The position numbers and the translations under genes were made by a program. A stretch of 64,000 nt of DNA, from NCBI RefSeq assembly GCF_050003625.1, contig NC_134397.1, forward strand, positions 150,039,526 through 150,103,525. Reading direction: 5' to 3'. The notes beneath the pieces were generated by a model, which saw only the letters and a program-made list of their open reading frames with translations, was not told the DNA's origin and ran no database searches. This stretch comes from Haematobia irritans (taxonomy: Eukaryota; Arthropoda; Insecta; Diptera; Muscidae). Shown here piece after piece: positions 8,327 to 55,612 of the stretch (position 1 is the first letter of the stretch; each line of letters starts with the position of its first letter).

Positions 8327-9687
8327 TAGTCCCCATATAAACCGATTTCCCGATTTGGGGTCTTGGGCTTATAAAAACCGTAGTTTTTATCCAATTTGCC
8401 TGAAATTAAAACTCTAGAGGTACTTGAGGACAATAAAAAGGTGTGCCGAAAATGGTGCCCATCGGTCCAAGTTTTGGTATAGCCCCCATATAGACCTATC
8501 TCCCGATTTTGCTGCTTGGGCGTCTAGAAACTGCATTTTCCATCCGATTTGCCTGAAATTGGAAGTCTAGAGGTATTTTGGGACCTTAAAGAGGTGTGTA
8601 GAAAATGGTTCATATCGATCCATGGTTTGGTATAGCCCCCATATAGACCTATCTCCCGATTTTGCTGCTTGGGCGTCTAGAAACTGCATTTTCCATCCGA
8701 TTTGCCTGAAATTGGAAGTCTAGAGGTATTTTGGGACCTTAAAGAGGTGTGTAGAAAATGGTTCATATCGATCCATGGTTTGGTATAGCCCCCATATAGA
8801 CCGATCTTTTGCTGCTTGGGCGTCTAGAAACTGTATTTTCCATCCGATTTGCCTGAAATTGAAAATCTAGAGGTATTTTAGGACCATAAAGAGGTGTGTC
8901 GAAAATGGTCAGTATCGGTCCATGTTTAGGTATAGTCGCCATATAGACCGATCTCCCGATTTTTGTTCTTGGGCTTCTATAAACTGTATTTATTACCCGA
9001 TATGCCTGAAATTGGAAATCTAGAGGTATTTGTATGCCGAAATTGACCGATCTCTCGGTTTTACTTCTTGGGTATCTAGAGACTATATTTTCTAGCCGAT
9101 TTGCTTGAAATTGAAAATCTACAGGTATTTTAAGATCACAAATAGGTGTGTCGAAAATGGTCTGTATCGGTCCATGTTTTGGTATAACCCCTATGTGGAC
9201 TGATCTCCCGATTTTACTTCTTGGGCTTCTAGAATCCGTATTACTTCGGCTTCTAGAATCCGTAGTTTTTATCCAATTTGCCGGAAATTAGAAATATAGA
9301 CTTATCTTAGGACCATAAAGAGGTGTGTCGAAAATGGTCCGTATCGGCCCATGTTTTGGTATAACCCCTATATACATTGATCTCCCGATTTTACTTCTTG
9401 GGCTTCTAGAATTCGTAGTTTTCACCAAATTCGTCTGAAAGTGGAATTCTAGAGGTATTTGAGGAACATTAAGAGGTGGTGAGTATTGGTCCCTGTTTTG
9501 GTATAGCCCCCATATGGACCAGATTTAACTCCTAGGGCTTCTACAAACCGTAGTATTTATCCGATTTACACACAAATTTAAACATACTGGAATTTTAGAC
9601 CCTCAAAAATCTGTATCGCGTTTATTTTTACCGGTCCATTGGACAAGGCATCGATATAGATCGATTTAACTCCTTGAGAGTACACCC

Positions 9688-12535: not shown

Positions 12536-13671
12536 GATTCTATTGAAATTAAAATGTTGAGAAAATTTTCTATAGAAATAAAATTTTGAGAAATTTTTCT
12601 ATAGAAAAAAAAAACTTTGACAAAATTTTCTATAGAAATAAAATTTTGACAAAATTTTTCTATAGAAATAAAATTTTGACAAAATTTTCTATTGAAATAA
12701 AATATTCACAAAATTTTCTATAGAAATAAAACTTTGACAAAATTTTTCTATAGAAATAAAATTTTGACAACATTTTTGCTATAGAAATAAAATTTTGAGT
12801 AAATCTTCTATTGAAAAAAAAATTTGAGAAAATTTTCTATTGAAATAAAATTTTGAGAAAATTTTCTATTGAAATAAAATTTTGAGAAAATTTTCTATTG
12901 AAACAATATTTCGACAAAATTTTCTGTAGAAAAAAATATTGTCAAAATTTTCTATAAAAATAAAATGTTGAAAAAATTTTCTATAGAAATAAAATTTTGA
13001 CAACATTTTTGCTATAGAAATAATATTTTGAGAAAATTTTCTATTGAAATAAACTTTTGAGAAAATTTTCTATAGAAATAATATTTTGACAAAATTTTCT
13101 ATTGAAATAAAATTTTCTCAAAATGTTCTATAGAAATAAATTTTTGACAAAACTTTCTATAGAAATAAAATATTGACTAAGTTGTCTATAGAAATAAAAT
13201 TTTGACAAAATGTTATACTGAAATAAAATTTTGACAAAATTTTCTATAGAAATAAAATTCTAACAAAATTTTCTATAGAAATAAAATTTTGACAAAATTT
13301 TCCATGGAAATACAATTTTAACAAAATTTTGTATAGAAATAAAATTTTGACAAAATTTTCTATGGAAATAAAATTTTGACAAAATTTTCGAAAGAAATTA
13401 AATTTTGACAAAATTTTCTATAGAAATTAAATTTTGACAAAATTTTCTATAAAAATAAAATTTTGACAAAATTTTCTATAATAATAAAATTTTGAGAAAA
13501 ATTTCTATAGAAGTTAAATTTTGACAAAATTTTCTGAAGGAATAAAAAATTGACAAAATTTTCTATAGAAATAAAAGTTTTCAAAATTTTCTATAGAAAT
13601 AAAATTTTGACAAAATTTTCTATAGAAATAAAATATTGACAAAATTTTCTATAGAAATAAATTTTTTTTTT
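12536..13671 (+). repeat. 29-bp minisatellite array (forward)
   Basis: About 39 copies of the 29-bp unit in intron 4 of the minus-strand gene. The array ends at the hammerhead-bearing element that follows. Confidence 0.95.
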
Positions 13672-14124
13672 CCATTTGTTTTGTTTTGTTATTGTTGGTT
13701 TTGTTCTTTAAGCATTGTTGTTGTTTTTTTTTATTTCAGCTTAAAACCATACATTGACTAAACTACAATTGTAGCTTAACCAACAGAGGAAAAGAATGTT
13801 TGTCAAATTTATTTGGGCAAAGCCCTATAGACTGCAAGATGGTTGGATGGACGCACGTTTCGGAATTACCACATTCCTCATCAGCATCCTCTACTTGCAG
13901 CAAAACTATCAACCAATTATCAGAATAAATTCAGGCAGTTTATTAAACCCAACAAAAACCACACTTGAACCCTCCGAAAAAAGGTTTTACATTGATAGCC
14001 GGCTTATGCCGAAATAAATTCGAAACAAACATATCTCTTTTCCTATGCCACTGTCAAATCATCGATTTGAATTCACATGGCTGGGTTTATTTTGAGCGTG
14101 CCTCCTCTTCTTTTTCCAAATAGA
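13672..14124 (-). mobile_element. Array-embedded foldback-type element carrying a hammerhead motif (copy 1)
   Basis: The left arm contains TTATTTCAGCTTAAAACC, CATACATTGACTAAACTAC and CTTAACCAACAGAGG, the inverse of arms found in the other copies. Then comes the complement of a hammerhead ribozyme (13832-13900), followed by a tail through CCGGCTTATGCCGAAATAAA. The right inverted arm is absent from this copy. The 29-bp array resumes at about 14125. The frame at 13796-14017 is not a gene: it overlaps the ribozyme. Confidence 0.75.
13832..13900 (-). ncRNA. Hammerhead ribozyme, type I, short stem III (copy 1)
   Basis: Read on the minus strand, every conserved hammerhead element is present. Stem I outer strand CTGCAAG and inner strand GGATG lead into the core CTGATGA. 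Stem II is GGAAT/ATTCC with loop GTGGTA, then GAAA. Stem III has two pairs (A-U and C-G) closed by loop GTGC, then cleavage triplet GTC. The stem I return strands are CATCC and CTTGCAG. Predicted self-cleavage lies between 13850 and 13849. The sequence is identical to the copies at 20293 and 21444. Activity is inferred, not shown. Confidence 0.88.
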
Positions 14125-15818
14125 AAATTTTATTTCTATAGAAATAAAATTTTGACAAAACTTTCTATAGAAATAACATTTTTACTAAGTTGTCTATATG
14201 TTTCACAAAATGTTCTATAGAAATAAAGTTTTGATAAAACTTTCTATAGAAATAAAATTTTGACTAAGTTGTCTATAGAATTAAAATTTTGACAAAATTT
14301 TCCATAGATATAAAATTCTGACAAAATTTCCTTTAGAAATAAAATTTTGACAAAATGTTTCTATAGAAGTAAAAATTTTGACAAAATTTTCTTTAGAAAT
14401 AAAATTTTGACAAATTTTCTATAGAAATAAAATCTTGACAAATTTTCTATAGAAATAAAATTTTGACAAAATTTTCTATAGAAATAAAATTTTGCCAAAA
14501 TTTTCTATAAAAGTAAAATTTCGCCAAAATTTTCTATAGAAATAATATTTTGACAAAATTTTCTATCGAAATAAAAATTTAACAAAATTTTCTATACAAA
14601 TAACATTTTGTCAAACTTTTCTATGCAAATAAAATTTCGATAAAATTTTCTATAGAAATAAAATTTTCTATAGAAATAAAATTCTAACAAAATTTTCTAT
14701 AGAAATAAAATTTTGACAAAATTTTCCATGGAAATAAAATGTTGACAAAATTTTGTATAGAAATAAAATTTTGACAAAATTTTCTATGGAAATAAAATTT
14801 TGACAAAATTTTCGAAATAAATTCAATTTAAAAATAAAATTTTGACAAAATTTTCTATAGAAATAAAATTTTGACAAATTTTCTATAGAAATAAAATCTT
14901 GACAAATTTTCTATAGAAATAAAATTTTGACAAAATTTTCTGTAGAAATAAAATTTTGACAAAATTTTCTATAAAAGTAAAATTTCGCCAACATTTGCTA
15001 TAAAAAAAAAATTTTGACAAATTTTTCTATCGAAATAAAAATTTGACAAAATTTTCTATACAAATAACATTTTGTCAAACTTTTCTATGCAAATAAAATT
15101 TCGACAAAATTTTCTATAGAAATAAAATTTTCTATAGAAATAAAATTCTAACAAAATTTTCTATAGAAATAAAATTTTGACAAAATTTTCCATGGAAATA
15201 AAATGTTGACAAAATTTTGTATAGAAATAAAATTTTGACAAAATTTTCTATGGAAATAAAATTTTGACAAAATTTTCGAAAGAAATTAAATTTAGAAATA
15301 AAATTTTGACAAAATTTTTCTATAGAAATAAAAATTTTGACAAAATTTTCTATAGAAATAAAATTTTGACAAATTTTCTATAGAAATAAAATCTTGACAA
15401 ATTTTCTATAGAAATAAAATTTTGACAAAATTTTCTGTAGAAATAAAATTTTGACAAAATTTTCTATAAAAGTAAAATTTCGCCAAAATTTTCTATTGAA
15501 ATAAAATTTTGACAAAATTTTCTATCGAAATAAAAATTTGACAAAATTTTCTATACAAATAAGATTTTGTCAAACTTTTCTATGCAAATAAAATTTCGAC
15601 AAAATTTTCTATAGAAATAAAATTTTGACAAAATTTTCTACAGAAATAAAATTTTGACAAAATTTTCTATAGAAATAAAGTTTTAATAAAGTTTTCTATA
15701 GAAATAAAATTTTGAGAAAATTTGTCATAAAAACAAAAATTTGCAAAATTTTTCATTGAAATAAAATTTTGACAAAATTTTCTATAGAAATAAATTTATT
15801 TCTATAGAAATAAAAGTG
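14125..15818 (+). repeat. 29-bp minisatellite array with a higher-order period near 480 bp
   Basis: About 58 units. A marker variant (CTATACAAATAACATTTTG then TCAAACTTTTCTATGC) recurs at about 14590, 15057 and 15545, so blocks of roughly 16-17 units have been duplicated together. It ends at GAAATAAAAGTGGCAATTTCG. Confidence 0.95.
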
Positions 15819-17119: not shown

Positions 17120-17655
17120 AAGGGTGATACGGTCAAAATTTAGTCAATATAAACTTGACGTATTTCTTTCAATTTTGCATTTAAAAAACCTGAATACCCC
17201 TCATTTTGAAGGTGTGTGTGTGTAGAATGTTGCTCCTATTTTGATTTTGGAATTCACTCTTTAGTTGTCAAAATGCCGTCCAAGCAAGAAGAGCAGCGTA
17301 TCAAAATTTTGCTCGCGCATCGCGAAAATCCGAGCTACTCGCACGCAAAGCTGGCAAAATCGCTAAAAGTGTTTAAAGTGTTTGGGGAACGTTTGTCGAC
17401 AGCCAGGAAGTCTGGATCGGGGGGAAATCGAAAACCTGAAGCCGCTGAGACGACAAAGAGAGTTACCGGTAGTTTCAAGCGAAACCCTAACCTCTCTCTC
17501 CGAGATGCCGCAAATAAGCTGGGTGTATCGTCTACAACCGTGCATCAAGCCAAAAAACGAGCCGGACTATCGACTTACAAGAAGGTAGTGACTCCAAATC
17601 GCGATGATAAACAAAATACGACGGCCAAAGCGTCGACGACAAAATACGACGGCCA
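17120..17655 (+). pseudogene. 5' half of a DD37E Tc1/mariner element
   Basis: It begins at the inverted end AAGGGTGATACGGTCAAAAT after TA (17118-17119). The frame from ATG 17273 gives MPSKQEEQRIKILLAHREN and the second helix-turn-helix (SLRDAANKLGVSSTTVHQAKK). About nine residues of the first helix-turn-helix are deleted (LAKSLKV joins directly to FKVFGER). The catalytic half and the other end are missing. The sequence passes at about 17655 into the 153-bp tandem units of a Helentron-like element. At the junction AAAATACGACGGCCA is present twice, about 28 bp apart. This is the second copy of the element at 7034-8326, in opposite orientation. Confidence 0.85.
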
Positions 17656-18664
17656 TGTTTCGGTATAGCGCACATATAGCCCGATCTACTGATGCGATTT
17701 CTTGCAATCCTTGAAACGTCAAATTTTATCCAGTTTGCTCTAAATTGGAAATTTTTGGCCTACACATAAATGTTGCGAAAATTGAGTGTATCGGTCCATG
17801 TTATGATATTTCCGTCATATAAATCGATCTCTCAATTTCACCCCTTGAGCGTCTAGACATCCCAAATTTTTATACGTTTTACCTGAAACTCAAAATCTAG
17901 AGCTATGTGGGGCGCATTGATCCACATTTTGACATAACCTCATATAGACCGATCTCCCGATTTGACTTCTGGAGCTTCTATGCACCGCAATTTTTACCCG
18001 ATCTGCCGGAAATTCAAAATATAGAGTTATTTTAGGTTTATAGTCGGATATGGTGTGAATCGGTTCATGTTTTGGTATATATCCCATATAAACTGATCTC
18101 CCGTTTTGACTCCTTAACCTTTTAGACATCACAGTTTTTACCCGATTTTTCTGGAATTCGAAATATTCTGTTTAGCGGTATTTTAGGTCCATTAGATTAT
18201 ATTATCCCACCTCAGTAATGCTGGTGACATTTCTGAGTGTTTGAAAGCTTCTCTAAGTGGTATCACTGCAATGTCGAACGCCGTTCGGACTCGGATATAA
18301 AAAGGAGGTCCCTTGTCATGGAGCTTAACATGGAATCGGACAGCACTCAGTGATAAGAGAGAAGTTCACCATTGTGGTATCACAATGGACTGAATAGTCT
18401 AAGTTAGCCCGAAATATCGGGCTGCCACTATATTCAGCCTAATCTAACCTTTAGTTCCATTAATATGTGTGACCAATATGGCTTGTATTGGGCAATGTTT
18501 TGGTATATATGTTTGCTTGACAGGGTGTCTGTCATCAAATTCACCCGAAATTTTATATATTTTCAAATAACCCGACGAAGAGTTTTCAAAGGAAACAATT
18601 ATATTTGATTCATAGTTTGGGGGGGAAGATTCGGCCCGGCATTCTTAAGTCCGTATTTACTTAT
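17656..18664 (+). mobile_element. Helentron-like element (type 2), 5' truncated
   Basis: Several diverged 153-bp units of the type seen at 8327-9660 (CGATCTCCCGATTTGACTTC cores). They are followed by the 3' end with a degraded hairpin (GATTCGGCCCGGC) and TATTTACTTATT at 18664. The 5' half is missing and replaced by the DD37E fragment. A SINE is inserted at 18195-18449. Confidence 0.75.
18195..18449 (+). mobile_element. tRNA-derived SINE, 5' truncated, with target-site duplication
   Basis: Body from ATCCCACCTCAGTAATGCTGG to the tail near AATCTAACC, in plus orientation and lacking the tRNA-like head. It is flanked by TTTAGGTCCATTA (18182-18194) and TTTAGTTCCATTA (18450-18462), a 13-bp duplication with one mismatch. 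That is the mark of LINE-mediated insertion, here into the Helentron-like element. Confidence 0.85.
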
Positions 18665-19210: not shown

Positions 19211-20067
19211 TACTCTTTCGTACTTCTATGACTTTAGTCCAAGCTTATCTATCATTTTCATTCTAAACTTACAAACAAGTTTTCTACCACTACGGCGTAT
19301 AAACCAGGTCTTAACTTCAAATGTTCTTGCCCATTTAATTTATCTGCTAAATATGCTGTCAATCCGAAATGGCATATATAGCAAACATCTATACCAACAT
19401 CAAATATGCTTAACTTAGAAAAAAATGAAGAATATAACGTTTATTTTGTTATTAGACGACGTATGCATTACCAATGAAAATTGTATTTTCTTTACTGAGG
19501 CATGAAACATATCATACAACAAATTAAATGGCTGCTAAAACTCGAAACATCTTCCCTGTAGATTTGCGTTCATATTTACCATAAATTTTCGACGCATGAA
19601 TGTGAAAAAATATTTGCATTATTTCTCAATCTAATTTCCCACTTGTTGGAAAGCACTTCTCTTCTATGGTATTCAGAATTAAGTTTTTTTTTTTTTGGCA
19701 CCAAAACTTCACAGAAATAAAATAAGACATACAAAAAACAAAATCATAGCAATAATAAATTTCTTTTTTGGAACTCTTATAACAGTAGTAAGCTTTTAGA
19801 ATTTCTCTCCAAATTGTTACTAAATGAAATTAAATTAATATGTTGTATACATTAGGGAGACATGCAAAATTGTTGCTAATTTTGCGATCCGAAATTTAAG
19901 TTCCAAGTGTGCAAAAATCGAAAACCACTAAGGCTGGTAGACACATTCCAAATAAAGATTTTTAAGAATTGTAACAAAACACCAAAATGTTTTTTAAAGG
20001 CAATTCTAATAATTCTTAAAATTTCAACTTTACAAACGTTTCACTATAACAGTGTAGGCAAAAATTA
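19211..20067. other. Intron 3, unique sequence
   Basis: A/T-rich, no supported exon or repeat. The 72-codon plus frame at 19200-19418 has no recognised motif. Confidence 0.45.
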
Positions 20068-20189
20068 AATTTTGACAAAATTATCTGTATGAATAAAAAA
20101 TTGACAAAATTTTCTATAGAAATTAAATTTTGACAAATTTTTCTATAGAACCAAATTTTGATAAAATTTTCTATAGAAATAAAATATTG
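20068..20189 (+). repeat. 29-bp minisatellite array (short)
   Basis: About four units of the 29-bp repeat immediately left of hammerhead element copy 2. Confidence 0.9.
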
Positions 20190-20478
20190 TTGGTTTTATT
20201 CTTTAAACATTGTTGTTGTTTTTTTATTTCAGCTTAAAACCATACATTGACTAAATGCCTGAATTTATTCTGATAATTGGTTGATAGTTTTGCTGCAAGT
20301 AGAGGATGCTGATGAGGAATGTGGTAATTCCGAAACGTGCGTCCATCCAACCATCTTGCAGTCTATAGGGCTTTGCCCAAATAAATTTGACAAACATTAT
20401 TTTCCTCTGTTGGTTAAACTACACTTGTAGTTTAGTAAATATATGGTTTTAAGCTGAAATAAAAAAACAACAACAATA
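20190..20478 (+). mobile_element. Array-embedded foldback element with hammerhead (copy 2)
   Basis: It has inverted arms. The left arm (TTATTTCAGCTTAAAACCAT near 20222) is mirrored by the right arm (ATGGTTTTAAGCTGAAATAA near 20445). The hammerhead (20293-20361) and a GGGC-TTT-GCCC hairpin lie between them. It is embedded in forward 29-bp arrays. Its right portion together with the following array is repeated 1151 bp downstream as copy 3. Confidence 0.8.
20293..20361 (+). ncRNA. Hammerhead ribozyme, type I, short stem III (copy 2)
   Basis: Stem I CTGCAAG...GGATG pairs with CATCC...CTTGCAG (7 and 5 pairs around an internal loop that could make the usual contact with loop II). The core is CTGATGA. 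Stem II GGAAT/ATTCC, loop GTGGTA, has the required G-C closing pair. GAAA is followed by the two-pair stem III with loop GTGC and the GTC triplet. Predicted cleavage lies between 20343 and 20344. Short stem III is typical of hammerheads in Penelope-like retroelements and retrozymes (known); this copy's parent element is not identified. Confidence 0.9.
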
Positions 20479-21430
20479 AAATAAAATGTTCACAAAAAAT
20501 TCTATAGAAAAAAATTTTCTGTAGAAATAAAAAATTGACAAAATTTTCTATAGAAATAAAATTTTGAAAAAAACTTTCTCTAGAAATAAAATTTTGACAA
20601 AATTTTCTCTAGAAAAAAAATGTTGACAAAATTTTCTATAGAAATAACATTTTGACAAAATTTTCTATAGAAATAAAAATTTGACAAAATTTTCTATAGA
20701 AATAAAGTTTTGACAAAAATTTTCTTAGAAATAAAATTTTGACAACATTTTCTACAGAAATAAAATTTTGACAAAATTTTCTATAGAGTAAAATTTTTGT
20801 CAAAATTTTCTATAGAAATAACATTTTCTATAGAAATAATTTTCTATAGAAATAAAATTTTGACAAAACTTTCTACCGAAATAAAATTTTGGCCAAATTT
20901 TTTATAGAAATTAAATTTTGACAACATTTTCTATAGAAATTAAATTTTGAAAAATTTTTCTATAGAAATAAAATTTTGACAAAATTTTTCTATAGAAATA
21001 AAATTTTGACAAAATTTTCTATAGAAATAAAATTTTGACAAAATTTTCTATAGAAATAAAATTTAGACAAAATTTTCTATAAAAATAAAATTTTGACAAA
21101 ATTTTCAATAGAAATAAAATTTTGACAAAATTTTCTATAAAAATAAAATTTTGACAAAATTTTCTACTTAAATAAAATTTTGGAAAAATTTTTTATGGAA
21201 ATCAAATTTTGACAAAATTTTCCATGGAAATAAAATTTTAACAAATTTGTACAGAAATAACATTTCGACAAAATTTTCTATCGAAATAAAATATTGACAA
21301 ATATTTCTATAATAATAAAATTTTGACAAAATTTTCTACAGAAATAAAATTTTGAAAAAATTTTCTATAGAAATGACATTTTGACAAAATTTTCTATAGA
21401 AATAAAATTTTCTATTATAATAAAATTTTG
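20479..21430 (+). repeat. 29-bp minisatellite array (forward)
   Basis: About 33 units. Variants such as TTTTTATGGAAAT and TTTGTACAGAAATAAC recur in the same order in the following array, showing that array and ribozyme element were duplicated together. Confidence 0.95.
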
Positions 21431-21634
21431 GTTGATAGTTTTGCTGCAAGTAGAGGATGCTGATGAGGAATGTGGTAATTCCGAAACGTGCGTCCATCCA
21501 ACCATCTTGCAGTCTATAGGGCTTTGCCCAAATAAATTTGACAAACATTATTTTCCTCTGTTGGTTAAACTACACTTGTAGTTTAGTAAATATATGGTTT
21601 TAAGCTGAAATAAAAAAATAACAACAATAAAATA
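21431..21634 (+). mobile_element. Array-embedded element with hammerhead (copy 3), left arm missing
   Basis: It starts abruptly at GTTGATAGTTTTG, contains the hammerhead (21444-21512), and keeps the right arm with CCTCTGTTGGTTAAACTAC and TTTTAAGCTGAAATAA. It is nearly identical to copy 2 from the ribozyme to the arm end. Confidence 0.8.
21444..21512 (+). ncRNA. Hammerhead ribozyme, type I, short stem III (copy 3)
   Basis: The same 69 nt as copies 1 and 2, with all core residues and stems intact. Predicted cleavage lies between 21494 and 21495. It is in tandem with copy 2 on the same strand at exactly 1151 bp. Confidence 0.9.
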
Positions 21635-22870
21635 AAATGTTCACAAAAAATTCTATAGAAAAAAATTTTCTGTAGAAATAAAAAATTGACAAAATTTTCT
21701 ATAGAAATAAAATTTTGAAAAAATTTTCTCTAGAAATAAAATTTTGAAAAAATTTTCTATAGAAATAACATTTCGACAAAATTTTCTATGGAAATAAAAA
21801 TTTGACAAAATTTTCTATAGAAAATAATAAAGTTCTGACAAACATTTTCTTAGAAATAAAATTTTGACAACATTTTCTACAGAAATAAAATTTTGACAAA
21901 ATTTTCTATAGAAGTAAAATTTTTGTCAAAATTTTCTACATAAATAAAATTTTGGCCAAATTTTTTATGGAAATAAAATTTTGACAAAATTTTCCATGGA
22001 AATAAAATTTTAACAAAATTTGTACAGAAATAACATTTTGACAAAATTTTCTATAGAAATAAAATTTTGACAAATATTTCTATAATAATAAAATGTTAAC
22101 AAAATTTTCTACAGAAATAAAATTTTGAAAAAATTTTCTATAGAAATAACATTTTGACAAAATTTCCTATAGAAATAAAATTTTCTATAATAATAAAATT
22201 TTGACAAAATTTTCTATAGAAATAAAATGTTGACAAAATTTTCAATGGAAATTAAATTTTGACAACTATTTCTATAATAATAAAATTTTGACAAAATTTT
22301 CTATAGAAATAAAATGTTGGCAAAATTTTCTACAGAAATAAAATTTTGACAAAATTTTCTACAGAAATAAAATTGTGACAAGTTTTTCTATAGAAATAAA
22401 ATTTTGACAACATTTTCTATAGAAATAAAAATTTGACAAAATTTTCTATATATATTAAATTTTGACAAAATTTTCTATAGATATTAAATTTTGACAAAAT
22501 TTTCTATAAATATTAAATTTTGACAAAATTGTCTATACAAATAAAATTTTGACAAAATTGTCTATACAAATAAAATTTTGACAAAATTTTTTATTAAAAT
22601 AAAATTTTGACAAAATTTTTAACAGAAATAAAATTTTGACAAAATCTTCTACAGAAATAAAATTTTGACAAAATTTTGAAATAAAATTTTGACAAAATTT
22701 TCTATAGAAAAAAAATTTTGACAAAATTTTCTATAGAAATAAAATTTTGATAAAACTTTTCATGGAAATACAATTTTGACAAATATTTCCATGGAAATAA
22801 AATTTTGACAAATTTTTCTATAAAAATTAAATTTTTGACAAAATTTTCTGTAGGAATAAAATGTTGGGAA
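21635..22870 (+). repeat. 29-bp minisatellite array (forward)
   Basis: About 42 units. The left half is homologous to 20479-21430. It ends at AAAATGTTGGGAAAATTTCAC. Confidence 0.95.
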
Positions 22871-23700
22871 AATTTCACCCACACAAATACCCACCCTAGT
22901 GTACATTTTTTCATATTGCTATTACTGCAATGCCAACAACTGTAATGGCTCTTTCAATTTGCTTGTCTATCTTTCTGAATATGTAACAGGAAATAAAAGG
23001 ATATTGGATTGCCTTAAATACATATGCATTTATGTATGGCTACACATATGAGGAGAGTGCAAGCAAACGCATTATTTCATTCACTTTTGAATATGAAATC
23101 GCATTCGAATGTGTGTTTGGTACGTTTATTGACAGACAGTGTACACAAATAGTTCGGAAATATGAATATTTATGAAATTGGACAATCCATGTCATGTTTA
23201 AAGCGTAGAGTACAAGGTTAGCAGGACTTGTGTATCTGAGTTTTGAAAGTATATGGTATTATTGCCAATTGGAGCACTTTTTTGTAGACGAAATTTACAC
23301 CAAAATTTAAATCGTTAAATTTTTGGAAAAAAATACAAGTATATGCGGCCGTAAGTTCAGCCGAGACGAATTTTAAATATCAACCACCATTGATCAAATG
23401 TAATAGTGTCTTTAAAAACACGTACTGTACCGGGCCGAACCAGGCCCGCTTCCTATTGTTTTCTATCTGAAAGATTATTTGTTGAAAAATACCTATTTTT
23501 AAGAAACAGTTAAGGTTCACTTAGTCAATCATATCCTTCACAGAATATTTCGTAGGATAAGATAATAAAATACCCCTACTGAAAAAAATCAAAAGGATTT
23601 GAAGTTATTTGCGAAATTCATATATACAGATTTCTCTATGTTGTCTGTCACTAAATGTATATTTTAATTTTCTTAAAAAAGTGTGGCACAAAGGAGAATT
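22871..23700. other. Intron 3, mostly unique; small Helentron-like end
   Basis: A 3' hairpin end of a Helentron-like element in minus orientation is visible at about 23334-23390 (TATATGCGGCCGTAAGTTCAG). The rest shows nothing I can assign. Confidence 0.5.
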
Positions 23701-28448: not shown

Positions 28449-30356
28449 AACATGTATATACGGCCGTAAGTTCGGCCAGGCCGAACCTTATGTACCTTCC
28501 ACCATGGATTGTGTAGAAACTTCTATCAAAGACTGCCATCCTCAATTGAATTACTCGGGTTGTGGTATCTTAAAACTTCTTAACACGGTTTTCTAAATTG
28601 TGAGTTAGTCCATACGTGGTATATATTAGACAAAAAAGTTATGTATAGGTAAGTCTACAAATAAATACGAATCAATATGGACTTTTGCACGGTACGTAGA
28701 GAGCCAGAATTGAAATATGGGGGTCGCTTATATGGGGGCTATGTATAATTATGAACTTGATATGGAGCAATTTTTGTGTGATTGGGGATCGATTTATCTG
28801 AGGGCTATATATCACTATAGACCGATATGAACCTAGTTAGGTATGGTTGTTAACAGCCATATACTAGCACAATGTACCAAATTTCAGCTGACTCGGATGA
28901 AATTTGCTCCTCCAAGAGGCTCCAAAACCAAATCTCGAGATCGGTTTATATGGGGGCTATATATGATTATGGACTGATATGGACCACTTTTGGCATGGTT
29001 GTTAAATATCATGTACTAACATCACGTACCAAATTTCAACCGAATCGGATGAATTTTGCTCTTCCATGGGGCTCCGGAGGTCAAATCTGGGGAACGGTTT
29101 ATATGGGGGCTATATATAATTATGGACCGATGTGGACCAATTTTTGCATGGTTATTAGAGACCATATACTAACAGCATGTGCCAAATTTCAGCCGGATCG
29201 GATGAAATTTGCTTCTCTTAGAGGCTCCGCAAGCCAAGTCGGAGCCTCTTGCTTTGACGAAATTTTCTATAGAAATAAATTTTTGACAAAATTTTGTATA
29301 GAAATTATATTTTGACAAAATTTCCTAAAGACATAAAATGTTAACAAAATTTTCTGTAGAAATAAAATTTTGACAAAATTTTCCATAGAAATATAAAATT
29401 TTGACAACATTTTCTATGGCAATAAAATTTTTGGTAGAATATATTTCGCTCGAGACGTAATCGAGATTTTTCTGTGATTGGGAATCAGTTTAGTTGGGGG
29501 CTATATATAATATAGATCGATACGGACCACTTTTGTCATGGTTGTTACCGGCCATACAGTAGCGAAATATACCAAACTTCAACCTGGTCGGATGATTTTT
29601 GCTCCTCCAGGAGGCTCCGGAGGTCAAATCTGGTGATCGGTTTATATAAGGGTTATATATAATTATGGACCGATATGAACCAATTCTGGTATGGTTGTTA
29701 GAGACCATATACTAACACCACGTACCAAATTTCAACCGGATCGGATGAAATTTTGCTTCTCTTAGAGGTTCCGCAAGCCAAATCTGGGGATCGGTTTATA
29801 TATAATTAATAACCGTTGTGTATATAATTAATAACCGATGTGGATCAAATTTTTCCTGGTTTCTGGAGACTATATACCAAAACCATGTTCCAAATTTCAA
29901 CCGGATCAGATGAAATTTGCTTCTCTTAGAGGCTCCGCAAACCAAATCTGGGGATCGGTTTATATGAGGGCTATATATAATTGTGGACCGATGTGGACCA
30001 ATTTTTGCAGGGTTGTTAGAGACCATATACCAACATCATGTACCAAATTTCAGCGGAATCGGATGAAATATTCTTCTCTTTGAGGCTCCGCAAGCCAAAT
30101 CTGGGGGTCCGTTTATATGGAGGCTATACGTAAAAGTGAACCGATATGGCCAATTGCAATACCATCCAACCTACATCAATAGCAACTACTTGTGCCAAGT
30201 TTCAAGTCTATAGCTTGTTTCGTTCACACGGACGGACGGACATGCTTAGATCGACTCAAAATTTCACCACGACCCAGAATATATATACTTTATGGGGTCT
30301 TAGAGCAATATTTCGATGTGTTACAAACGAATGACAATGTTAATAATGAAGGGTAT
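28449..30356 (-). mobile_element. Helentron-like element containing a 29-bp array
   Basis: In minus orientation the element's 3' end is at left: AACATGTATATACGGCCGTAA with the TTCGGCCAGGCCGAA hairpin. Diverged 153-bp units follow to about 29240. A short 29-bp array (29255-29435) interrupts them, further units follow, and the GGACGGACGGAC run lies near 30229. The 5' end is at about 30356 (GGGTAT). The right flank is the long AT run. Confidence 0.85.
29255..29435 (+). repeat. 29-bp minisatellite inside a Helentron-like element
   Basis: About six forward units embedded within the 153-bp tandem region, joined at CTCTTGCTTTGACGAAATTT. Shows that array blocks can be inserted into other repeats. 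Confidence 0.9.
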
Positions 30357-30406: not shown

Positions 30407-31711
<1,305 letters not shown>

Positions 31712-44164: not shown

Positions 44165-45926
44165 TTTTTGTGATTAGTAAAAAATTTTGTCAAAATTTTA
44201 TTTCTATAGAAAAAAATTTCAAAATTTTATTTCTATAGAACATTTTGTTACAATTTTATTTCTATCGAATTTTTTTTTTTTTAATTTTATTTCTACAGAA
44301 AATTTTGTCAAAATTTTATTTGTATAGAAAAATTTTGTCAAAGTTTTATTTCTATAGAAGTTTTTGTCAAAATTTTATTTCTATAGAAAATTTTGTTAAA
44401 ATTTTGTTTCTATAGAAAATTTTGTGCAATCTGTATTTCTATAGAAAATTTTGTCAAAATTATATTTCCTTAGAAAATATTGTCCCGAATTTACTTCTAT
44501 AGAAAATTTCCCAAAATTTTATTTCTGTATAAAATTATTTCAAAAGTTTATTCCTATAGAAAATTTTGTCAAAAATTTACTTCTAAAGAAAATATTGTCA
44601 CAATTTTTTTCTATAGAAAATTTTATCAGAATGTTATTTCTACAGAAAATTTTATCAAAATTTTATTTCCATAGAAAATCTTGTCAACATTTTATTTCTA
44701 CAAAAAAGTTTATCAAAACTTTTACTTGTATAGAAAATTTTATTAAAATTGTATTTCGACAGAAAATTTTGTCAAAATTTTATTTCTATATAATATTTTA
44801 TCAAAATTTTATTTCTATAGAAAATTTTGTCAAAATTTTATTTCTATAGAAAATTTTGTCCAAAAATTTTATTTCTATATAAAATTTTGTCAAAATTTTA
44901 TTTCTATAGAAAACTTTGTCAAAATTTTTACATCTATAAAAAAATTTTTGTGAAATTTTTATTTCTATAGAAGATGTCAAAATTTTATTTCTATAGAAAA
45001 TTTTGACAAAATTTTATTTCTATAGAAAATTTTGTTACAATTTTATTTTTATAGAAAATTTTTTCAAAAATTTATTTCTATAGAACATTTTGTTAAAATT
45101 TTATTTCTATAAAAATTTGTTTAAAATTTTATTTCTATAAAAAAATTTTTCAAAATTTTATTTCTATCGAAATTTTTTTTTAAATTTTATTTCTACAGAA
45201 AATTTTGTCAAAATTGTATTTGAATAGAGAAATTTTGTCAAAATTTTATTTCTATAGAAAATTTTGTGCAAACTGTATTTCTATAGAAAATTTTGTCAAA
45301 ATTATATTTCCTTAGAAAATTTTGTCAAAATTTTATTTCCATAAAAAATTTTGTCAAAATTTTATTTCTATAGAAAATTTTGTCAAAATTTTATTTCTAT
45401 AGAAAATTTTGTTAAAATTTTGTTTCTATAGAAAATTTTGTAAAACTTTTATTTCTATAGAAATTTATCTCAAAATTTTATTTCTATACAAAATATTGTC
45501 ACGAATTTACTTCTATAGAAAATTTCCCAAAATTTTATTTCTGTATAAAATTATTTCAAAAGTTTATTCCTATAGAAAATTTTGTCAAAAATTTACTTCT
45601 AAAGATAATTTTGTCACAATTTTTTTCTATAGAAAATTTTATCAGAATGTTATTTCTACACAAAATTTTATCAAAATTTTATTTCCATAGAAAATCTTGT
45701 CAAAATTTTATTTCTACAACAAAGTTGATCAAAACTTTTACTTGTATAGAGAATTTGATTAAAATTTTATTTCTATAGAAAATTTTGTCAAAATTTTATT
45801 TCTATAGAAAATTTTGTCAAAATTTTATTTCTATAGAAAATTTTGTTAAAATTTCATTTCTATAGAAAAATTTTTTTTAAAAATTTATTTCAATAGAACT
45901 TTTTGTTAAAATTTTATTTCTATAAA
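44165..45926 (-). repeat. 29-bp minisatellite array (reverse orientation)
   Basis: The unit is now the complement (TTTTATTTCTATAG then AAAATTTTGTCAAAA). About 60 units. Part of it (44400-44740) is an older relative of the exactly duplicated block that follows. The 132-codon frame at 44451-44849 is repeat translation: three 29-bp units encode 29 residues. Confidence 0.95.
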
Positions 45927-46058
45927 AATTTTTTTTCATTCGTTTTGTTTTGTTATTGTTGGTTTTTGTTCTTTAATCATTGTTGTTGTTTTTTTTTATT
46001 TCAGCTTAAACCCATACATTGACTAAACTATAAGTGCAGCTTAACCAACAGAGGAAAA
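45927..46058 (+). mobile_element. Arm of the hammerhead element, without ribozyme (copy 5)
   Basis: Contains TTGTTATTGTTGGTTTTTG, TTATTTCAGCTTAAACCC and CTTAACCAACAGAGGAAAAG, then returns directly to the array. The ribozyme and right arm are missing. Confidence 0.8.
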
Positions 46059-46790
46059 GAAAAAAAAAATTGTCAAAATTTTATTTCTATAGAAGTTTTT
46101 GTCAAAATTTTATTTCTATAGAAAATTTTGTGCAAACTGTATTTCTATAGAAAATTTTGTCAAAATTATATTTCCTTAGAAAATTTTGTCAAAATTTTAT
46201 TTCCATAAAAAATTTTGTCAAAATTTTATTTCTATAGAAAATTTTGTCAAAATTTTATTTCTATAGAAAATTTTGTTAAAATTTTGTTTCTATAGAAAAT
46301 TTTGTAAAACTTTTATTTCTATAGAAATTTATCTCAAAATTTTATTTCTATACAAAATATTGTCACGAATTTACTTCTATAGAAAATTTCCCAAAATTTT
46401 ATTTCTGTATAAAATTATTTCAAAAGTTTATTCCTATAGAAAATTTTGTCAAAAATTTACTTCTAAAGATAATTTTGTCACAATTTTTTTCTATAGAAAA
46501 TTTTATCAGAATGTTATTTCTACACAAAATTTTATCAAAATTTTATTTCCATAGAAAATCTTGTCAAAATTTTATTTCTACAACAAAGTTGATCAAAACT
46601 TTTACTTGTATAGAGAATTTGATTAAAATTTTATTTCTATAGAAAATTTTGTCAAAATTTTATTTCTATAGAAAATTTTGTCAAAATTTTATTTCTATAG
46701 AAAATTTTGTTAAAATTTCATTTCTATAGAAAAATTTTTTTTAAAAATTTATTTCAATAGAACTTTTTGTTAAAATTTTATTTCTATAAA

Positions 46791-46922
46791 AATTTTTTTT
46801 CATTCGTTTTGTTTTGTTATTGTTGGTTTTTGTTCTTTAATCATTGTTGTTGTTTTTTTTTATTTCAGCTTAAACCCATACATTGACTAAACTATAAGTG
46901 CAGCTTAACCAACAGAGGAAAA
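46791..46922 (+). mobile_element. Arm of the hammerhead element, without ribozyme (copy 6)
   Basis: Same sequence as 45927-46058, carried by the 864-bp duplication. Confidence 0.8.
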
Positions 46923-49670
46923 GAAAAAAAAAATTGTCAAAATTTTATTTCTATAGAAGTTTTTGTCAAAATTTTATTTCTATAGAAAATTTTGTGCAAA
47001 CTGTATTTCTATAGAAAATTTTGTCAAAATTATATTTCCTTAGAAAATATTGTCACGAATTTACTTCTAAAGAAATTTTCCCAATATTTTATTTCTGTAT
47101 AAAATTATTTCAAAAGTTTATTTCTATAGAAAATTTTGTCAGAAATTTTATTTCTACAGAAAATTTCGTCAAAATTTTATTTCTATAGAATATTTTATCA
47201 AAATTTAGCTTGTATAGAAAATTTTGTCAAAATTTTAATTCTATAGAAAATGTTATTTCTATAGAAAATTTTGTCAAAAATTTTATTTCTATACACAATT
47301 TTGTCAAAAATTTATTTCCATAACAATTTTTGTAAAAATTTTATTTCTATAGGAAATTTTGTAAAAATTTTATTTCTATAGAGAATTTTGCCAAAATTTT
47401 ATTCCTATAGAAAATTTTGTCAAAATTTTATCTCTATAAAAATTTTCTCACAATTTTATTTCCATAGAAAACATTATCAAAATTTTATTTCTATAGAAAA
47501 TTTTATCAAAATTTAGCTTCTATAGGAAATTTGGCAAAATTTTATTTCTATAAAAAATTTTGTCAAAATGTTCTTTCTATAGAAAATTTTGTCAAAATTT
47601 TATTTTTATAGAAAACCTTGTCAAAAGTTTATTTCGTTAGAAAATATTACCAAAATTTCTATAGAAGCCAATTCTATAGAAATTTTTGTCAAAATTTCAT
47701 TTTTATAGAAAAATTTCTCAAAATTTTATTTCTATAGAATATTTGCAAGATTTTATTTTTATAGAAAATTTTGTCAAAATTTTATTTCTATAGAACATTT
47801 TGTTAAAAATTTATTTCTATAGAAATTTTTCTCAAAATTTTACTTCTATAGAAAATTTTGTTAAAAATTTATTTCTACAGAAAATTTTGTCAAAATTTTA
47901 TTTCTATAGAAAAATTTTGTCAACATTTTATTATACCCTGCGCCACACTGTGGAACAGGGTATAGAAAATTTTGTGCAAACTGTATTTCTATAGAAAATT
48001 TTGTCAAAATTATTTTTCCTTAGAAAATTTTGTCAAAGTTTTATCTCTATAAAAATTTTGTCACAATTTTATTTCTATAGAAAATTTTATCAAAATTTAG
48101 CTTCTATAGGAAATTTGGCAAATTTTTATTTCTATAAAAAATTTTATCAAAATTTTCTTTCTATAGAAAATATTGTCAAAACTTTATTTTTTTATAGAAA
48201 ACTTTGTCAAAAGTTTATTTCTATAGAACATTTTGTTAAAAATTTATTTCTATAAAAATTTTGTCAAATTTTTAACTCTATAGAATTTTTTGTTAAATTT
48301 TTATTTCTATAGAGTATTTTATCAAAATTTAGCTTATATAGAAAATTTTGTCAAAATTTTATTTCTATAGAAAATTTTGTTAAAATTTTGTCAAAATTTT
48401 ATTAAAATTTTATTTCTGTAGAAAATTTTGTCAAAAATTTTTTTCTATAGAAAATTTTGTCAATGTTTTATTTCTATAGAAAATTTTGTCAAAATTTTAT
48501 TTCTATAGAAAATTTTGTTAAAATTTTATTTCTTTAGAAAATTTTTACAAAAATTTTGTTAAATTTTGTTAAAATTTTATTTCTATAAAAAATTTTGTCA
48601 AAATTTTATTTCTATAGAAGTTTTTGCCAAAATTTAATTCTATGGAAAAAATTTTTAAAACTTTTACTTCTATAAAAAATTTTTGTCAAATTTTTATTTC
48701 TATAGAAAATTTTATTTCTATAGAAAATTTTGTCAAAATTTTATTCTATAGAAAATTTTGTTGAAATTTTATTTCTATAGAACATTTTGTCAAAATTTTA
48801 TTTCTATAGAACATTTTGTCAAAATTTTATTTCTATAGAAATATCTCTCACATTTTTATTTCTACAGAAAATTTTGTCAAAAATTTATTTCTATAAAAAG
48901 TTTGGTCACAAATTTACTTCTATAGAAAATTTCCCAAAATTTTATTTCTGTATAAAATTATTTCAAAAGTTTATTTCTATAGAATATTTTGTCAGAAATT
49001 TACTTCTAAAAAAAATTTTGCCAAAAATGTTCTGCTATGGAAAATATTGTCAAAGATTTACTTCTATAGAAAAGTTTATCAGAATGTTATTTCTACTGAA
49101 AATTTTAACAAAATGTTATTTCCATAGAAAATCTTGTCAAACTTTTATTTCTACAGAAATTTTATCATAACTTTTACTTCCATAGAAAATGTTATTCAAA
49201 TTTTACTTCTACAGAAAATTTCGTCAAAATTTTATTTCTATAGAATATTTTATCAAAATTAAGCTTGTATAGAAAATTTTGTCAAAATTTTATTTCTATA
49301 GAAAATTTTGTCAAAAGTTTTATTTCTATAGAAAATTTTGTCAAAAATTTTATTTCTATACACAATTTTGTCAAAATTTTATTTCTATAAAAATTTTGCC
49401 AACATTTTATTCCTTTAGAAAGTTTTGTCAAAATTTTTACTTCTATAAAAAAATTTTGTCAAAATTTTACTTCTGGAGAAAACTTTGCCAAAATTGTATT
49501 TCTATAGACATTGTTAGTCAAAATTTTATTGCTATAGAATTTTTTGTCAAAATTTTATTTCTATAGAAAATTTTGTATAAATTGTATTTCCATAGAAAAT
49601 TTGGCCAACATTGTAGTTTGATAGAAAATTTTGACAAGATTTTATTTCTTTAAAAAAATATTGTCAAAAA
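46923..49670 (-). repeat. 29-bp minisatellite array (reverse), continued
   Basis: About 94 units. At 47933-47963 it is interrupted by a solitary 31-nt hairpin, ATACCCTGCGCCACACTGTG and GAACAGGGTAT. This is identical to the 5' end of the Helentron-like element at 31712-32762. Confidence 0.95.
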
Positions 49671-52639: not shown

Positions 52640-52936
52640 TACCAAAAAACTACCAAACAAAAACAATATTTGGCAAACTTTTATTCCTAAATTTTGTCAA
52701 AATTTTACTTCTATAGGAAATTTAGTCAAAATTTTATTTCTATAGAAAGTTTTGTCAAAATTTTATTTCTATAGAAAGTTTTGTCAAAATTCTATAGAAA
52801 ATTTTGTCAAAATTTTATTTCTATAGAAAATTTTTTAAAAGTTTATTTCTATAGAAAATTTTGTCAACATTTTATTTCAGTAGAAAATTTTGTCAACATT
52901 TTATTTCTGTTGAAAATTTTGTCAAAACTTTATTTC
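52640..52936 (-). repeat. 29-bp minisatellite array (reverse)
   Basis: About ten units preceding hammerhead element copy 4. Confidence 0.93.
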
Positions 52937-53342
52937 GTTTTGTTTGTTATTGTTGGCTTCTCTTCAATCGTTATTGTTGTTTTTGATCTCAGCTTAAACC
53001 CATGCATTGACTAAACTACAAGTGTAGCTTAACCAACAGAGGAAAAGTATGCTTGTCAAATTTATTTGGGCAAAGCCCTATAGACTGCAAGATGGTTGGA
53101 TGTACAGCTGTTTCGGAATTACCACATTCCTCATCAGCATCCTCTACTTGCAGCAAAACTATCAACCAATTATCAGAATAAATTCGGGTAATTCACTCAA
53201 CCCAAAGTGAACTACACTTGAACCTCCCGAAGGCTTTGCCCAAATAAATTTGACAAGCATACTTTTCCTCTGTTGGTTAAGCTACACTTGTAGTTTAGTC
53301 AATGCATGGCTTTAAGCTGAGATCAAAAATAACAATAAAACT
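52937..53342 (-). mobile_element. Complete foldback element with hammerhead (copy 4)
   Basis: Both inverted arms are present. The left arm has TTGATCTCAGCTTAAACCC, CATGCATTGACTAAACTACA and CTTAACCAACAGAGGAAAAG. The right arm, its complement, has CTTTTCCTCTGTTGGTTAAG and GGCTTTAAGCTGAGATCAA (arms about 130 bp). Between them lie the ribozyme (53085-53153, minus) and about 70 bp of spacer. It is the only copy with both arms full, so it best defines the element. Confidence 0.85.
53085..53153 (-). ncRNA. Hammerhead ribozyme variant with GUA cleavage triplet (copy 4)
   Basis: Minus-strand reading keeps the stem I, CTGATGA, stem II and GAAA elements of the other copies. The stem III loop is AGCT instead of GTGC, and the triplet is GTA instead of GTC, still an allowed NUH triplet. 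Predicted cleavage lies between 53103 and 53102. All changes avoid the invariant core. Confidence 0.87.
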
Positions 53343-55612
53343 TTATTTCTATAAAAAATTTTGTCAAAATTTTATTTCTATAGAAAACTCTGTCAAAATG
53401 TTATTTTTATAGAAAATTTTGTCAAAGTTTTATTTCTATAGAAAATTTTTGTCAACATTTTATTTCTATAGAAAATTTTGTCAAAATTTTATTTCTAAAG
53501 AAAATTTTGTCAAAATTTTATTTCTATAGAAAATTTTGTCAAAATTTTATTTCTATAGAAAGTTTTGTCAAAATTTTATTTCTATCGAAAATTTTGTCAA
53601 AAGTTTATTTCTGTTGAAAATTTTGTCCAAATTTTATTTCTGTTGAAAATGTTGTCAAAATTTTATTTCCGTTGAAAATTTTGTCAAAATTTTATTTCTG
53701 TTGAAAATTTTGTCAAAATTTTATTTCTATGGGAAGTTTTGTAAACAATTTATTTTTATAGAAAATGTTGTCAAAAGTTTATTTCCAAATTTTATTTGTA
53801 TAGAAAGTTTGGTCAAAATTTTATTTTTATAGAAAATTTTGTCAACATTTTATTTCTATGAAAATTTTGTAAAAATTTTATTTCGGTAGAAAATTTTGTC
53901 AAAATCTAATTTCTATAGAAAAATTTATCCAAATTTTATTTCTATTGAAATCTTTGTCAAAACTTTATTTCTGTAGAATATTTGGTCAAAATTATATTTA
54001 TAAAGGAAATTTTGTCAAAATTTTATTTCCATAGATTGTTTTGTCAAAATTTTATTTCTGTAGAAAATTGTGTCAAAATTTTATTTCATTGGAAAATGTT
54101 GTCAAAATTTTATTTCTATAGAAAATTTTGTCAAAATGTTATTTGTATAGAAAATTTTGTCAAAATTTTATTTCTTTAGAAAATTTTGTCAAAATTTAAT
54201 TTCTATAGAAAATTTTGTCCAAATTTCATTTCTATTGAAATCTTTGTCAAAATGTTATTTCTAACGAAAATTTTGTCAAAATTGTATTTCTATAGAAAAT
54301 GTTGTCAAAAATGTATTTCTATAGAAAATTTTGTCAAAATTTTATTTCTATGGAAAGTTTTGTCAAAATTTTATTTGTATAGAAAGTTTGGTCAAAATTT
54401 TATTTTTATAGAAAATTTTGTCAACATTTTATTTCTATAGAAAATTTTGTAAAAATTTTATTTCTGTAGAAAATTTTGTCAAAATCTAATTTCTATAGAA
54501 AAATTTATCCAAATTTTATTTCTATTGAAATCTTTGTCAAAACTTTATTTCGGTAGAATATTTGGTCAAAATTATATTTATAAAGGAAATTTTGTCAAAA
54601 TTTTATTTCCATAGAATGTTTTGTCAAAATTTTATGTCTGTAGAAAATTGTGTCAAAATTTTATTTCATTGGAAAATTTTGTCAAAATTTTATTTCTATA
54701 GAAAATTTTGTCAAAATGTTATTTGTATAGAAAATTTTGTCAAAATTTTATTTCTTCAGAAAATTTTGTCCAAATTTTATTTCTGTTGAAAATTTTGTCC
54801 AAATTTTATTTCTGTTGAAAATTTTGTCAAAACTTTATTTCTATAGAAAATTTTTTAAAAATTTCATTTTTATAGAAAATTTTGTCAAAACTTTATTTCT
54901 ATTGAAAATTTTGTCAAAATTTTATTTCTTTAGAAAATTTTGTCAAATTTTATTTCTATAGAAAATTTTGCAAAATTTTATTTTTGTAGAAAATTTTGTC
55001 AACATTTTATTTCTGTTGAAAATTTTGCAAAATTTTATTTCTGTTGACAATTTTGTCAAAATGTTATTTCTATAGAAAATTTGTCAAAATTTTATTTCTA
55101 TAGAAAATTTTGCAAAATTTTATTTCTATAGAAAATGTTGTCAAAAGTTTATTTCTAAAGAAAATTTTTTCCAAATTTTATATCTGTTGAAAATTTCGTT
55201 AAAATTTTATTTCTATCGAAAATTTTGTCAAAATTTTATTTCTTTAGAAAATGTTGTCAAAATTTTATTTCTATGGAAAATTTTGTCCAAATTTTATTTC
55301 TGTTGAAAATTGTGTCAAAATTTTATTTCTGTTTAAAATTTTGTCAAAATTTTATTTCTATAGACAATTTTGTCAACATTTTGTTTCTATAGAAAATTTT
55401 GTCAAAATTTTATTTTTATAGAAAATTGTGTCCAAATTTTATTTCTGTTGAAAATTGTGTCAAAATTTTATTTCTAAAGAAAATTTTGTCAACATTTTAT
55501 TTCTATAGAAAATTTTGTCAAAATTTTATTTCTAAAGAAAATTTTGTCAAAATTTTATTTCTATATAAAATTTTGTCAAAATTTTATTTCTATAAAAAAT
55601 TTTGTCAAAATT
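53343..55612 (-). repeat. 29-bp minisatellite array (reverse) with a 580-bp duplication
   Basis: About 78 units. A block with GGTCAAAATTATATTTATA and AAATCTTTGTCAAAACTTTA occurs at about 53862-54200 and again 580 bp downstream, with few differences. The array ends at CAAAATTAGTTGGTGAGG. Confidence 0.95.

What the first reader, a model, noticed from the sequence alone, without database searches (positions are those of the whole stretch)
20293..20361. Hammerhead ribozymes embedded in the minisatellite arrays
Seen: a 69-nt sequence with all invariant hammerhead residues (CTGATGA, GAAA, an NUH triplet) and three complementary stems (7+5 bp stem I, 5-bp stem II, 2-bp stem III). It occurs four times, at 13832 (minus), 20293 (plus), 21444 (plus) and 53085 (minus). 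Known: type I hammerheads with very short stem III occur in Penelope-like retroelements, retrozymes and some animal satellites. Inferred: the element is a ribozyme-bearing mobile or satellite unit, possibly a derivative of a Penelope-like terminal repeat.
Basis: partly seen in the sequence, partly recalled or inferred. Interest (0 to 1): 0.93.

Follow-up and report, generated by a model that had tools for sequence, protein, structure and literature searches.

The report
Penelope-style hammerhead retrozyme in minisatellites
A 441-letter repeat carrying a predicted self-cutting hammerhead RNA occurs in more than ten thousand copies in this genome, and the shared ends and mirror-image layout of the copies examined suggest that it was likely spread by a Penelope-type copying enzyme, which would help settle how such ribozyme-bearing elements move in animals.

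Summary
The 69-nt type I hammerhead motif is at all four stated places; the fourth differs only in the stem-III loop and the base before the cut, and keeps the hammerhead rules. Rfam misses it (16.1 bits, cut-off 34), so the case rests on genome copies: 11,894 exact copies of its first 26 bases, two subfamilies (6,797 and 3,208 exact cores), none in reversed-pattern controls. The motif belongs to a 441-bp (or about 435-bp) monomer that forms tandem arrays, sits mainly in the 29-bp minisatellite in the sample read, and resembles animal non-LTR retrozymes. New here is its insertion anatomy: 3' ends cluster at two A-rich sites about 40 bp apart, 5' ends are ragged, word counts fall 3' to 5' (12,456 to 5,304), listed neighbours are head-to-head 22 times and tail-to-tail never, and 16 of 18 scorable head-to-head pairs carry the 40-bp "tail" on exactly one arm. 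That is the published signature of Penelope-like elements. I conclude that it is a non-autonomous retrozyme copied by Penelope-type reverse transcription; cleavage and circular RNA are untested and the donor enzyme was not found. New variant of a known kind.

The parts
20293..20361 (+). Type I hammerhead motif, subfamily A; predicted cut between 20343 and 20344
20253..20477 (+). 5'-truncated element copy, monomer m386-441 then m1-169 (ends at the short 3' site)
20185..20255 (-). Head-to-head partner arm, monomer m123-193 (tail-class 3' end)
21444..21512 (+). Hammerhead motif, copy made by local duplication of the 20.2-kb insertion
21428..21628 (+). Element copy m410-441 then m1-169 inside that duplication
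13832..13900 (-). Hammerhead motif, subfamily A
13664..14118 (-). About one full monomer, m209-441 then m1-219 (tail-class 3' end)
53085..53153 (-). Hammerhead motif, subfamily B (loop AGCT, cleavage triplet GTA)
52934..53231 (-). Element copy m348-441 then m1-208 (tail-class 3' end)
53232..53338 (+). Head-to-head partner arm m61-168 (short 3' end, no ribozyme)
45931..46061 (-). 5'-truncated copy m89-216, no ribozyme
46795..46925 (-). 5'-truncated copy m89-216, no ribozyme; looks like a duplicate of 45931-46061 (same ends, same flanks)
12538..15794 (+). 29-bp minisatellite array holding the 13.6-kb insertion (element inside)
20062..22875 (+). 29-bp minisatellite arrays around the 20.2 and 21.4-kb copies (arrays with the insertions between)
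44181..49669 (-). 29-bp minisatellite array holding the two ribozyme-less copies
52689..55612 (-). 29-bp minisatellite arrays around the 52.9-kb insertion

Best explanation
The 69-nt motif is a predicted type I hammerhead ribozyme inside a 441-bp, apparently protein-less tandem repeat that was likely copied and inserted by a Penelope-type reverse transcriptase, so it is best read as an animal non-LTR retrozyme that likely works like a stripped Penelope terminal repeat. Likely cycle: tandem copies are transcribed (inferred); the hammerhead cuts the transcript, possibly as a dimer through its self-complementary stem-III loop, and host ligase closes 441-nt circles (inferred from published retrozymes). 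A Penelope-type protein made elsewhere would cut A/T-rich DNA, mostly the 29-bp minisatellite, on both strands, and would start reverse transcription inside the RNA at one of two A-rich sites, m168 or m208-219. Copying would run upstream, pass the ribozyme and stop at random, giving ragged 5' ends and, on circular or multimeric RNA, tandem arrays; two such cDNAs meeting head to head would close the site. Shown here: motif, copy numbers, tandem and head-to-head layout, two 3' sites, one tail per pair, ragged 5' ends, minisatellite flanks. Inferred: transcription, cleavage, circles, enzyme.
For: Tandem monomers: 33 of 34 same-strand neighbours within 1.5 kb in the 100 listed places of each subfamily are 427-442 bp apart; L031 holds 5 minus then 6 plus cores, its nine full monomers 99.8-100% identical to the one taken as reference. 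Clustered 3' ends: of 123 runs in 68 loci, 56 end at m150-180 (31 of them at m168-169), 44 at m190-222, 22 elsewhere, 1 cut by the locus edge. One tail per pair: 28 head-to-head pairs, 18 with both ends in a class: 16 short+tail, 2 tail+tail, 0 short+short (P about 5e-4 if ends were independent). Orientation: 22 head-to-head, 0 tail-to-tail neighbours among the listed places. Gradient of exact words of 26 fixed bases from 3' to 5': m61-86 12,456, m1-26 11,894, m399-424 10,865, about m251-280 5,304. Penelope-like elements show internal initiation at two adjacent sites that bound the 30-40 bp tail, the main one in an AC-rich stem loop, cleavage of both strands at AT-rich DNA, and a hammerhead (PMC11167929, abstract and main text); inverted head-to-head repeats with the tail on one of them, and mobilisation in trans by the repeat alone (PMC3846280, passages). 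Minisatellite flanks: 83 insertions, 59 both sides, 17 one side, 7 none, against 45 of 240 random tiles. Ribozyme kept: one monomer each of subfamilies A and B (L031, L116) have 0 differences in the 74 nt m396-m28 against 45 in 290 aligned positions of m91-395, yet all four loop-III bases and base 17 differ, within hammerhead rules.
Against: No autonomous Penelope element was found: the Pfam GIY-YIG search scored 25 candidates and gave one match, which reads by eye, from recall, as host SLX1; that model may miss Penelope endonucleases, and I had no Penelope protein to search with. Rfam score below its cut-off. Target-site duplications not established in 7 insertions outside the minisatellite. 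The run-based list (48 loci) flags 3 tail-to-tail contacts: two are hits nested inside another run, one (L070) is a rearranged locus. If cut linear RNA were the usual template, 5' ends should pile up at m36: of 42 runs not chosen by the search pattern and with a classed 3' end, 23 start within m1-150 and only 2 within m33-40, about 1.2 expected; both stop at m37 by eye, so cleavage neither shows clearly nor is excluded. In 24 tail places without an exact subfamily-A core, 7 motifs are broken. The loci were mostly found through an intact core, so 5'-end statistics there are biased.
Confidence: 0.72

Rival explanations
1. Same retrozyme, but moved by a LINE-type (non-Penelope) reverse transcriptase that primes on A-rich tracts with the T-rich strand of the minisatellite; the inverted copies would be twin priming.
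For: A-rich 3' ends, 5' truncation and head-to-head inversion also follow from LINE twin priming (recalled); in several loci the flank next to the 3' end begins like ATTTT or ATAAAATTTT; the literature leaves LINEs open as carriers (PMC7229834 discussion; PMC11722881 passages).
Against: No terminal poly(A) at one fixed RNA end but two discrete internal sites 40 bp apart; exactly one tail in 16 of 18 scorable pairs; 22 to 0 head-to-head among listed neighbours.
Confidence: 0.17
2. Ordinary satellite DNA spread by recombination; the hammerhead is a passenger or relic.
For: Tandem arrays of near-identical monomers; satellites with hammerheads are known (PMC6155905 passages).
Against: 109 of 123 sampled runs are shorter than 600 nt; word counts fall from 12,456 to 5,304 along the monomer, whereas a satellite has all phases about equally; 3' ends cluster at two sites.
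Confidence: 0.06
3. A DNA element of foldback, MITE or Helitron/DINE-1 type: the inverted repeats around 20185-20477 are its terminal repeats and the minisatellite its core.
For: At first sight the window copy looks like inverted repeats beside a repeat array, as in DINE-1 (PMC3630058 and PMC2374699 passages).
Against: The 'terminal repeats' vary in length from locus to locus and are truncated copies of the same monomer; arms up to 2.4 kb exist.
Confidence: 0.03
4. The motif does not cut; it is kept for another reason, such as protein binding. (Not exclusive of the carrier question.)
For: Rfam below cut-off; in the Anolis Penelope element the ribozyme was inactive without protein and not needed for insertion in vitro (PMC11167929).
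Against: Between the two subfamily monomers compared, the changes in m1-35 lie only in the stem-III loop and base 17, where a hammerhead tolerates change; base 17 is not G in any of the 24 tail places read.
Confidence: 0.2

Closest known systems
Animal non-LTR retrozymes (Cervera and de la Pena 2020, PMC7229834; passages and discussion read)
   Same: Type I hammerhead with 2-bp stem III and tetraloop, tandem monomers of a few hundred bp, low GC (36%), thousands of copies, no room for a reverse transcriptase.
   Different: There the carrier enzyme is only proposed, and the word starts 'inverted', 'head-to' and 'truncated' do not occur in the main text. Here 3' sites, tails and head-to-head pairs can be read; flanks are mostly one 29-bp minisatellite.
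Penelope-like elements, Penelope/Poseidon clade (PMC11167929 abstract and main text; PMC3846280 passages)
   Same: Hammerhead upstream of two internal start sites 30-40 bp apart, optional tail on one inverted repeat, head-to-head copies, partial tandems, AT-rich targets.
   Different: No reverse transcriptase or endonuclease in the 441-bp unit; the hammerhead here has a stem III, Penelope ones usually lack it (PMC6155905); start sites lie about 133 nt after the predicted cut against about 85-92 nt in Anolis (computed from the numbers printed there).
Type III hammerheads reported for dipterans including the housefly (PMC7936874, passages)
   Same: Hammerheads in fly genomes.
   Different: Those are type III and resemble ones in delta-virus-like RNAs; this is type I.

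Membership tests
Hammerhead ribozyme, type I | Invariant core CUGANGA / GAAA / NUH and three stems with open stem I | tested here: met
Hammerhead ribozyme, type I | Rfam RF00163 gathering score | tested here: not met
   16.1 bits against 34; 0 hits at gathering
Hammerhead ribozyme, type I | Site-specific self-cleavage | not testable with these tools
   no RNA data or bench; the 5'-end footprint at m36 is inconclusive
Animal non-LTR retrozyme | Type I hammerhead in short tandem repeats of 150-450 bp, GC below 50% | tested here: met
   441 and about 435 bp, tandem; GC 0.36; definition
Animal non-LTR retrozyme | Expression as circular RNA | not testable with these tools
   no transcript data
Animal non-LTR retrozyme | Longer target-site duplications where present | tested here: inconclusive
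   7 insertions outside the minisatellite, shared words within the random range
Penelope-like element | Two internal 3' sites (tail), with the tail on one of two inverted repeats | tested here: met
   16 of 18 scorable pairs; published signature
Penelope-like element | Head-to-head inverted and partial tandem copies | tested here: met
   22 head-to-head, 0 tail-to-tail, 34 same-strand among listed neighbours
Penelope-like element | ORF with reverse transcriptase and usually a GIY-YIG endonuclease | tested here: not met
   the unit is 441 bp in tandem, too short to hold it; so it is not itself a full Penelope element
Penelope-like element | Autonomous partner in the same genome | tested here: inconclusive
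   PF01541: one match, reads as SLX1; no reverse-transcriptase search was made

The most novel reading that the evidence does not exclude
Animal retrozymes are Penelope repeats reduced to a ribozyme and a reverse-transcription start: a Penelope enzyme circles round the ribozyme-made RNA from two fixed internal start sites, from both sides of a double-strand break in a minisatellite, and so builds mirror-image tandem arrays in one insertion. This genome with its more than ten thousand copies is the fossil record of that reaction.
Probability: 0.5. Interest if true: 0.85.

Novelty: new variant of a known kind. Interest (0 to 1): 0.67.

Why it matters
Which enzyme moves animal retrozymes is open: the papers read name LINEs or Penelope-like elements as candidates and propose that retrozymes may be reduced Penelope elements (PMC7229834; PMC11722881). 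Insertion anatomy that carries the Penelope tail rule gives that proposal countable support and a system to test it. It also shows a ribozyme element that mostly sits in one minisatellite in the sample read.

Tried and rejected
Helitron/DINE-1 or MITE with terminal inverted repeats: my first reading, dropped once arms proved to be truncated monomers of varying length. Rfam at gathering and at E<=5 over the window: no hammerhead. Blast-type search of the genome with the 71-mer: nothing, probably because very common words are skipped. Pile-up of 5' ends at the cut as a footprint of cleavage: inconclusive. Target-site duplications: inconclusive. PF26215 is not in the library; PF01541 found an SLX1-like match only. 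Exact copies in viral and prokaryotic contigs: 0. Own-window pattern with a wrong gap length gave 0; a first fuzzy script timed out. No other fly genome was searched; none was on hand.

Full report
WHAT IS IN THE WINDOW. A descriptor scan of both strands finds four hits and 200 dinucleotide shuffles give one in all. Three copies have the core CTGATGAGGAATGTGGTAATTCCGAAACGTGCGTC; the fourth (53085-53153, minus) has AGCT in place of the GTGC loop and GTA in place of the GTC triplet, so the rule NUH holds and the loop stays self-complementary (GUGC with two G-U pairs, AGCU fully). The Rfam model scores it far below its cut-off (16.1 against 34 bits) and not at all in the whole-window searches; free-energy folding keeps stems I and II but prefers another pairing to stem III. 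The copy at 21444 is a local duplicate of the one at 20293, so the window has three independent ribozyme-bearing insertions; 45931 and 46795 are ribozyme-less copies with the same ends and flanks, one apparently a duplicate of the other.

THE WINDOW IN ITS GENOME. The exact 35-nt core of subfamily A occurs 6,797 times, that of subfamily B 3,208 times, the first 26 bases 11,894 times; each pattern read backwards gives 0. 3,724 copies with an intact m1-28 and T at m34 have a loop III that does not start with G.

THE ELEMENT. In the 100 listed places of each subfamily, neighbours within 1.5 kb on the same strand (34) are 427-442 bp apart in 33 cases. L031 holds five minus and then six plus cores; its nine full monomers of 441 bp are 99.8-100% identical to the one taken as reference. 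I number the monomer from CTGATGA (m1); the predicted cut lies after m35. It has 36% GC.

INSERTION ANATOMY. In 68 loci (the window and 67 non-overlapping loci fetched around the exact core A) blastn against the monomer gives 123 runs of 30 nt or more. Their 3' ends fall at m150-180 in 56 and at m190-222 in 44; 22 lie elsewhere and 1 is cut by the locus end. The peaks are m168-169 (31), m208-209 (16) and m216-219 (14). The 5' ends are scattered. There are 28 head-to-head pairs. In 18 both 3' ends fall in a class: 16 have one short and one tail end, 2 have two tails, none two short ends; the other 10 have at least one end outside the classes and were not scored. If the ends were independent, 16 or more of 18 would have a probability near 5e-4. 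In the listed places there are 22 head-to-head and 0 tail-to-tail neighbours; the earlier run list of 48 loci flags 3 tail-to-tail contacts, two of them hits nested inside another run and one in the rearranged locus L070. Exact words of 26 fixed bases, chosen to be shared by both subfamilies, drop with distance from the 3' sites: 12,456, 11,894, 10,865, 5,304; the last lies in a less conserved stretch, so part of that drop may be decay.

TARGET. Of 83 insertions with two readable flanks 59 have 29-bp minisatellite on both sides, 17 on one and 7 on none. Random 160-bp tiles from 20 places on the same contig: 45 of 240 minisatellite-like; window tiles 118 of 399. Local duplications were not removed and the insertions come from the first 19 Mb of the contig plus the window. 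Duplicated target sites could not be shown in the 7 insertions outside the minisatellite.

IS THE RIBOZYME KEPT? One monomer of subfamily B (L116, 432 bp) compared with one of A (L031): no difference in m396-441 plus m1-28 (74 nt, a block I chose after seeing the alignment), 45 differences in 290 aligned positions of m91-395; the four loop-III bases and base 17 all differ, and m36 differs in this copy. Of the first 30 listed tail places, chosen without regard to the ribozyme, six lie in loci already read; the other 24 have no exact core A beside them, so they lean towards damaged motifs. Of these 24, 17 have an intact motif by rule (at least 4 pairs in stems I and II), 3 are rearranged and 4 have core or stem changes.

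WAS THE RNA CUT? A linear RNA cut at m35|36 would give cDNAs that stop at m36. Of 42 runs not selected by the pattern that brought the locus in (window copies counted among them), and with a classed 3' end, 23 start within m1-150 and 2 within m33-40, about what chance gives (1.2); by eye both stop at m37 (L061, L113). One arm selected by the tail pattern starts near m39-41 (L116). So most of these cDNAs do not end at the cut site, which fits a circle or an uncut multimer as template. In the Anolis Penelope element too, uncut RNA was the main template in vitro and the ribozyme needed the protein to cut (PMC11167929, main text).

COMPARISON WITH PRINT. PMC11167929 (abstract and main text) reports two adjacent internal start sites that bound the 30-40 bp tail, the main one in an AC-rich stem loop, cutting of both strands at AT-rich DNA, and a hammerhead. 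PMC3846280 (passages) reports head-to-head inverted repeats, a 31-bp tail on one of them, palindromes at the junction, and mobilisation by the repeat in trans. The tail, its place on one arm, the head-to-head layout and the AT-rich target are the features found here; palindromes were not scored and mobilisation in trans is inferred. PMC7229834 (passages and discussion) defines animal retrozymes and names LINEs or Penelope-like elements as possible carriers; PMC11722881 (passages) proposes that retrozymes are reduced Penelope elements. PMC7936874 (passages) mentions type III hammerheads in housefly and fruit flies. The papers of Cervera 2014 and Lunse 2017 are not held; they are cited through others, and dimer cleavage is taken from PMC7761336 and PMC6155905 passages. 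In the listings I saw no paper that reports this element or the tail rule in a retrozyme, judged by titles, abstract starts and the passages read.

WEIGHING. The anatomy is direct; the enzyme is inferred from it. The missing donor is the main gap: PF01541 found only a host SLX1-like exon (the SLX1 label is from recall), and I had no Penelope protein to search with. A LINE-type carrier with twin priming is the strongest rival, but it does not predict one tail per pair. The element is not itself a Penelope element (no room for the ORF); it works like the Penelope terminal repeat and meets the tested structural features of an animal retrozyme.

Noticed in passing
window 894-1529, 2972-4682, 39716-42087 and others: The 29-bp minisatellite (AAAATTTTCTATAGAAATAAAATTTTGAC) marks 118 of 399 window tiles and 45 of 240 random tiles of contig C1, a large share of this genome if C1 is typical.
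   Followed up: partly
window 125-548, 8327-9130, 28783-30155, 33902-35978, 58930-61376: Tandem repeats with a period of about 153 bp recur in several places; blastn with the ribozyme element does not hit them.
   Followed up: no
window 7449-8207 (-), 17216-17668 (+), 57799-58242 (+): Fragments that look like Tc1/mariner-type transposases (by eye); Pfam gives HTH_24 for the second and a sub-cut-off Transposase_1 for the third, nothing for the first.
   Followed up: partly
monomer m427-432, e.g. L002, L114, L121, L122: Several copies begin close to AAGTAGAGGATG, inside the 5' strand of hammerhead stem I, as if reverse transcription stopped at the folded motif.
   Followed up: no
monomer m396-424: 29 nt just upstream of the hammerhead are identical between the two subfamily monomers compared although they lie outside the ribozyme; a promoter or protein site is possible.
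   Followed up: no
G000 C1:41423900-41424700 (L131): The only GIY-YIG match of the genome search reads like an SLX1 gene with a stop or intron inside.
   Followed up: partly
window 30409-30582: Perfect (AT)87 dinucleotide run.
   Followed up: no
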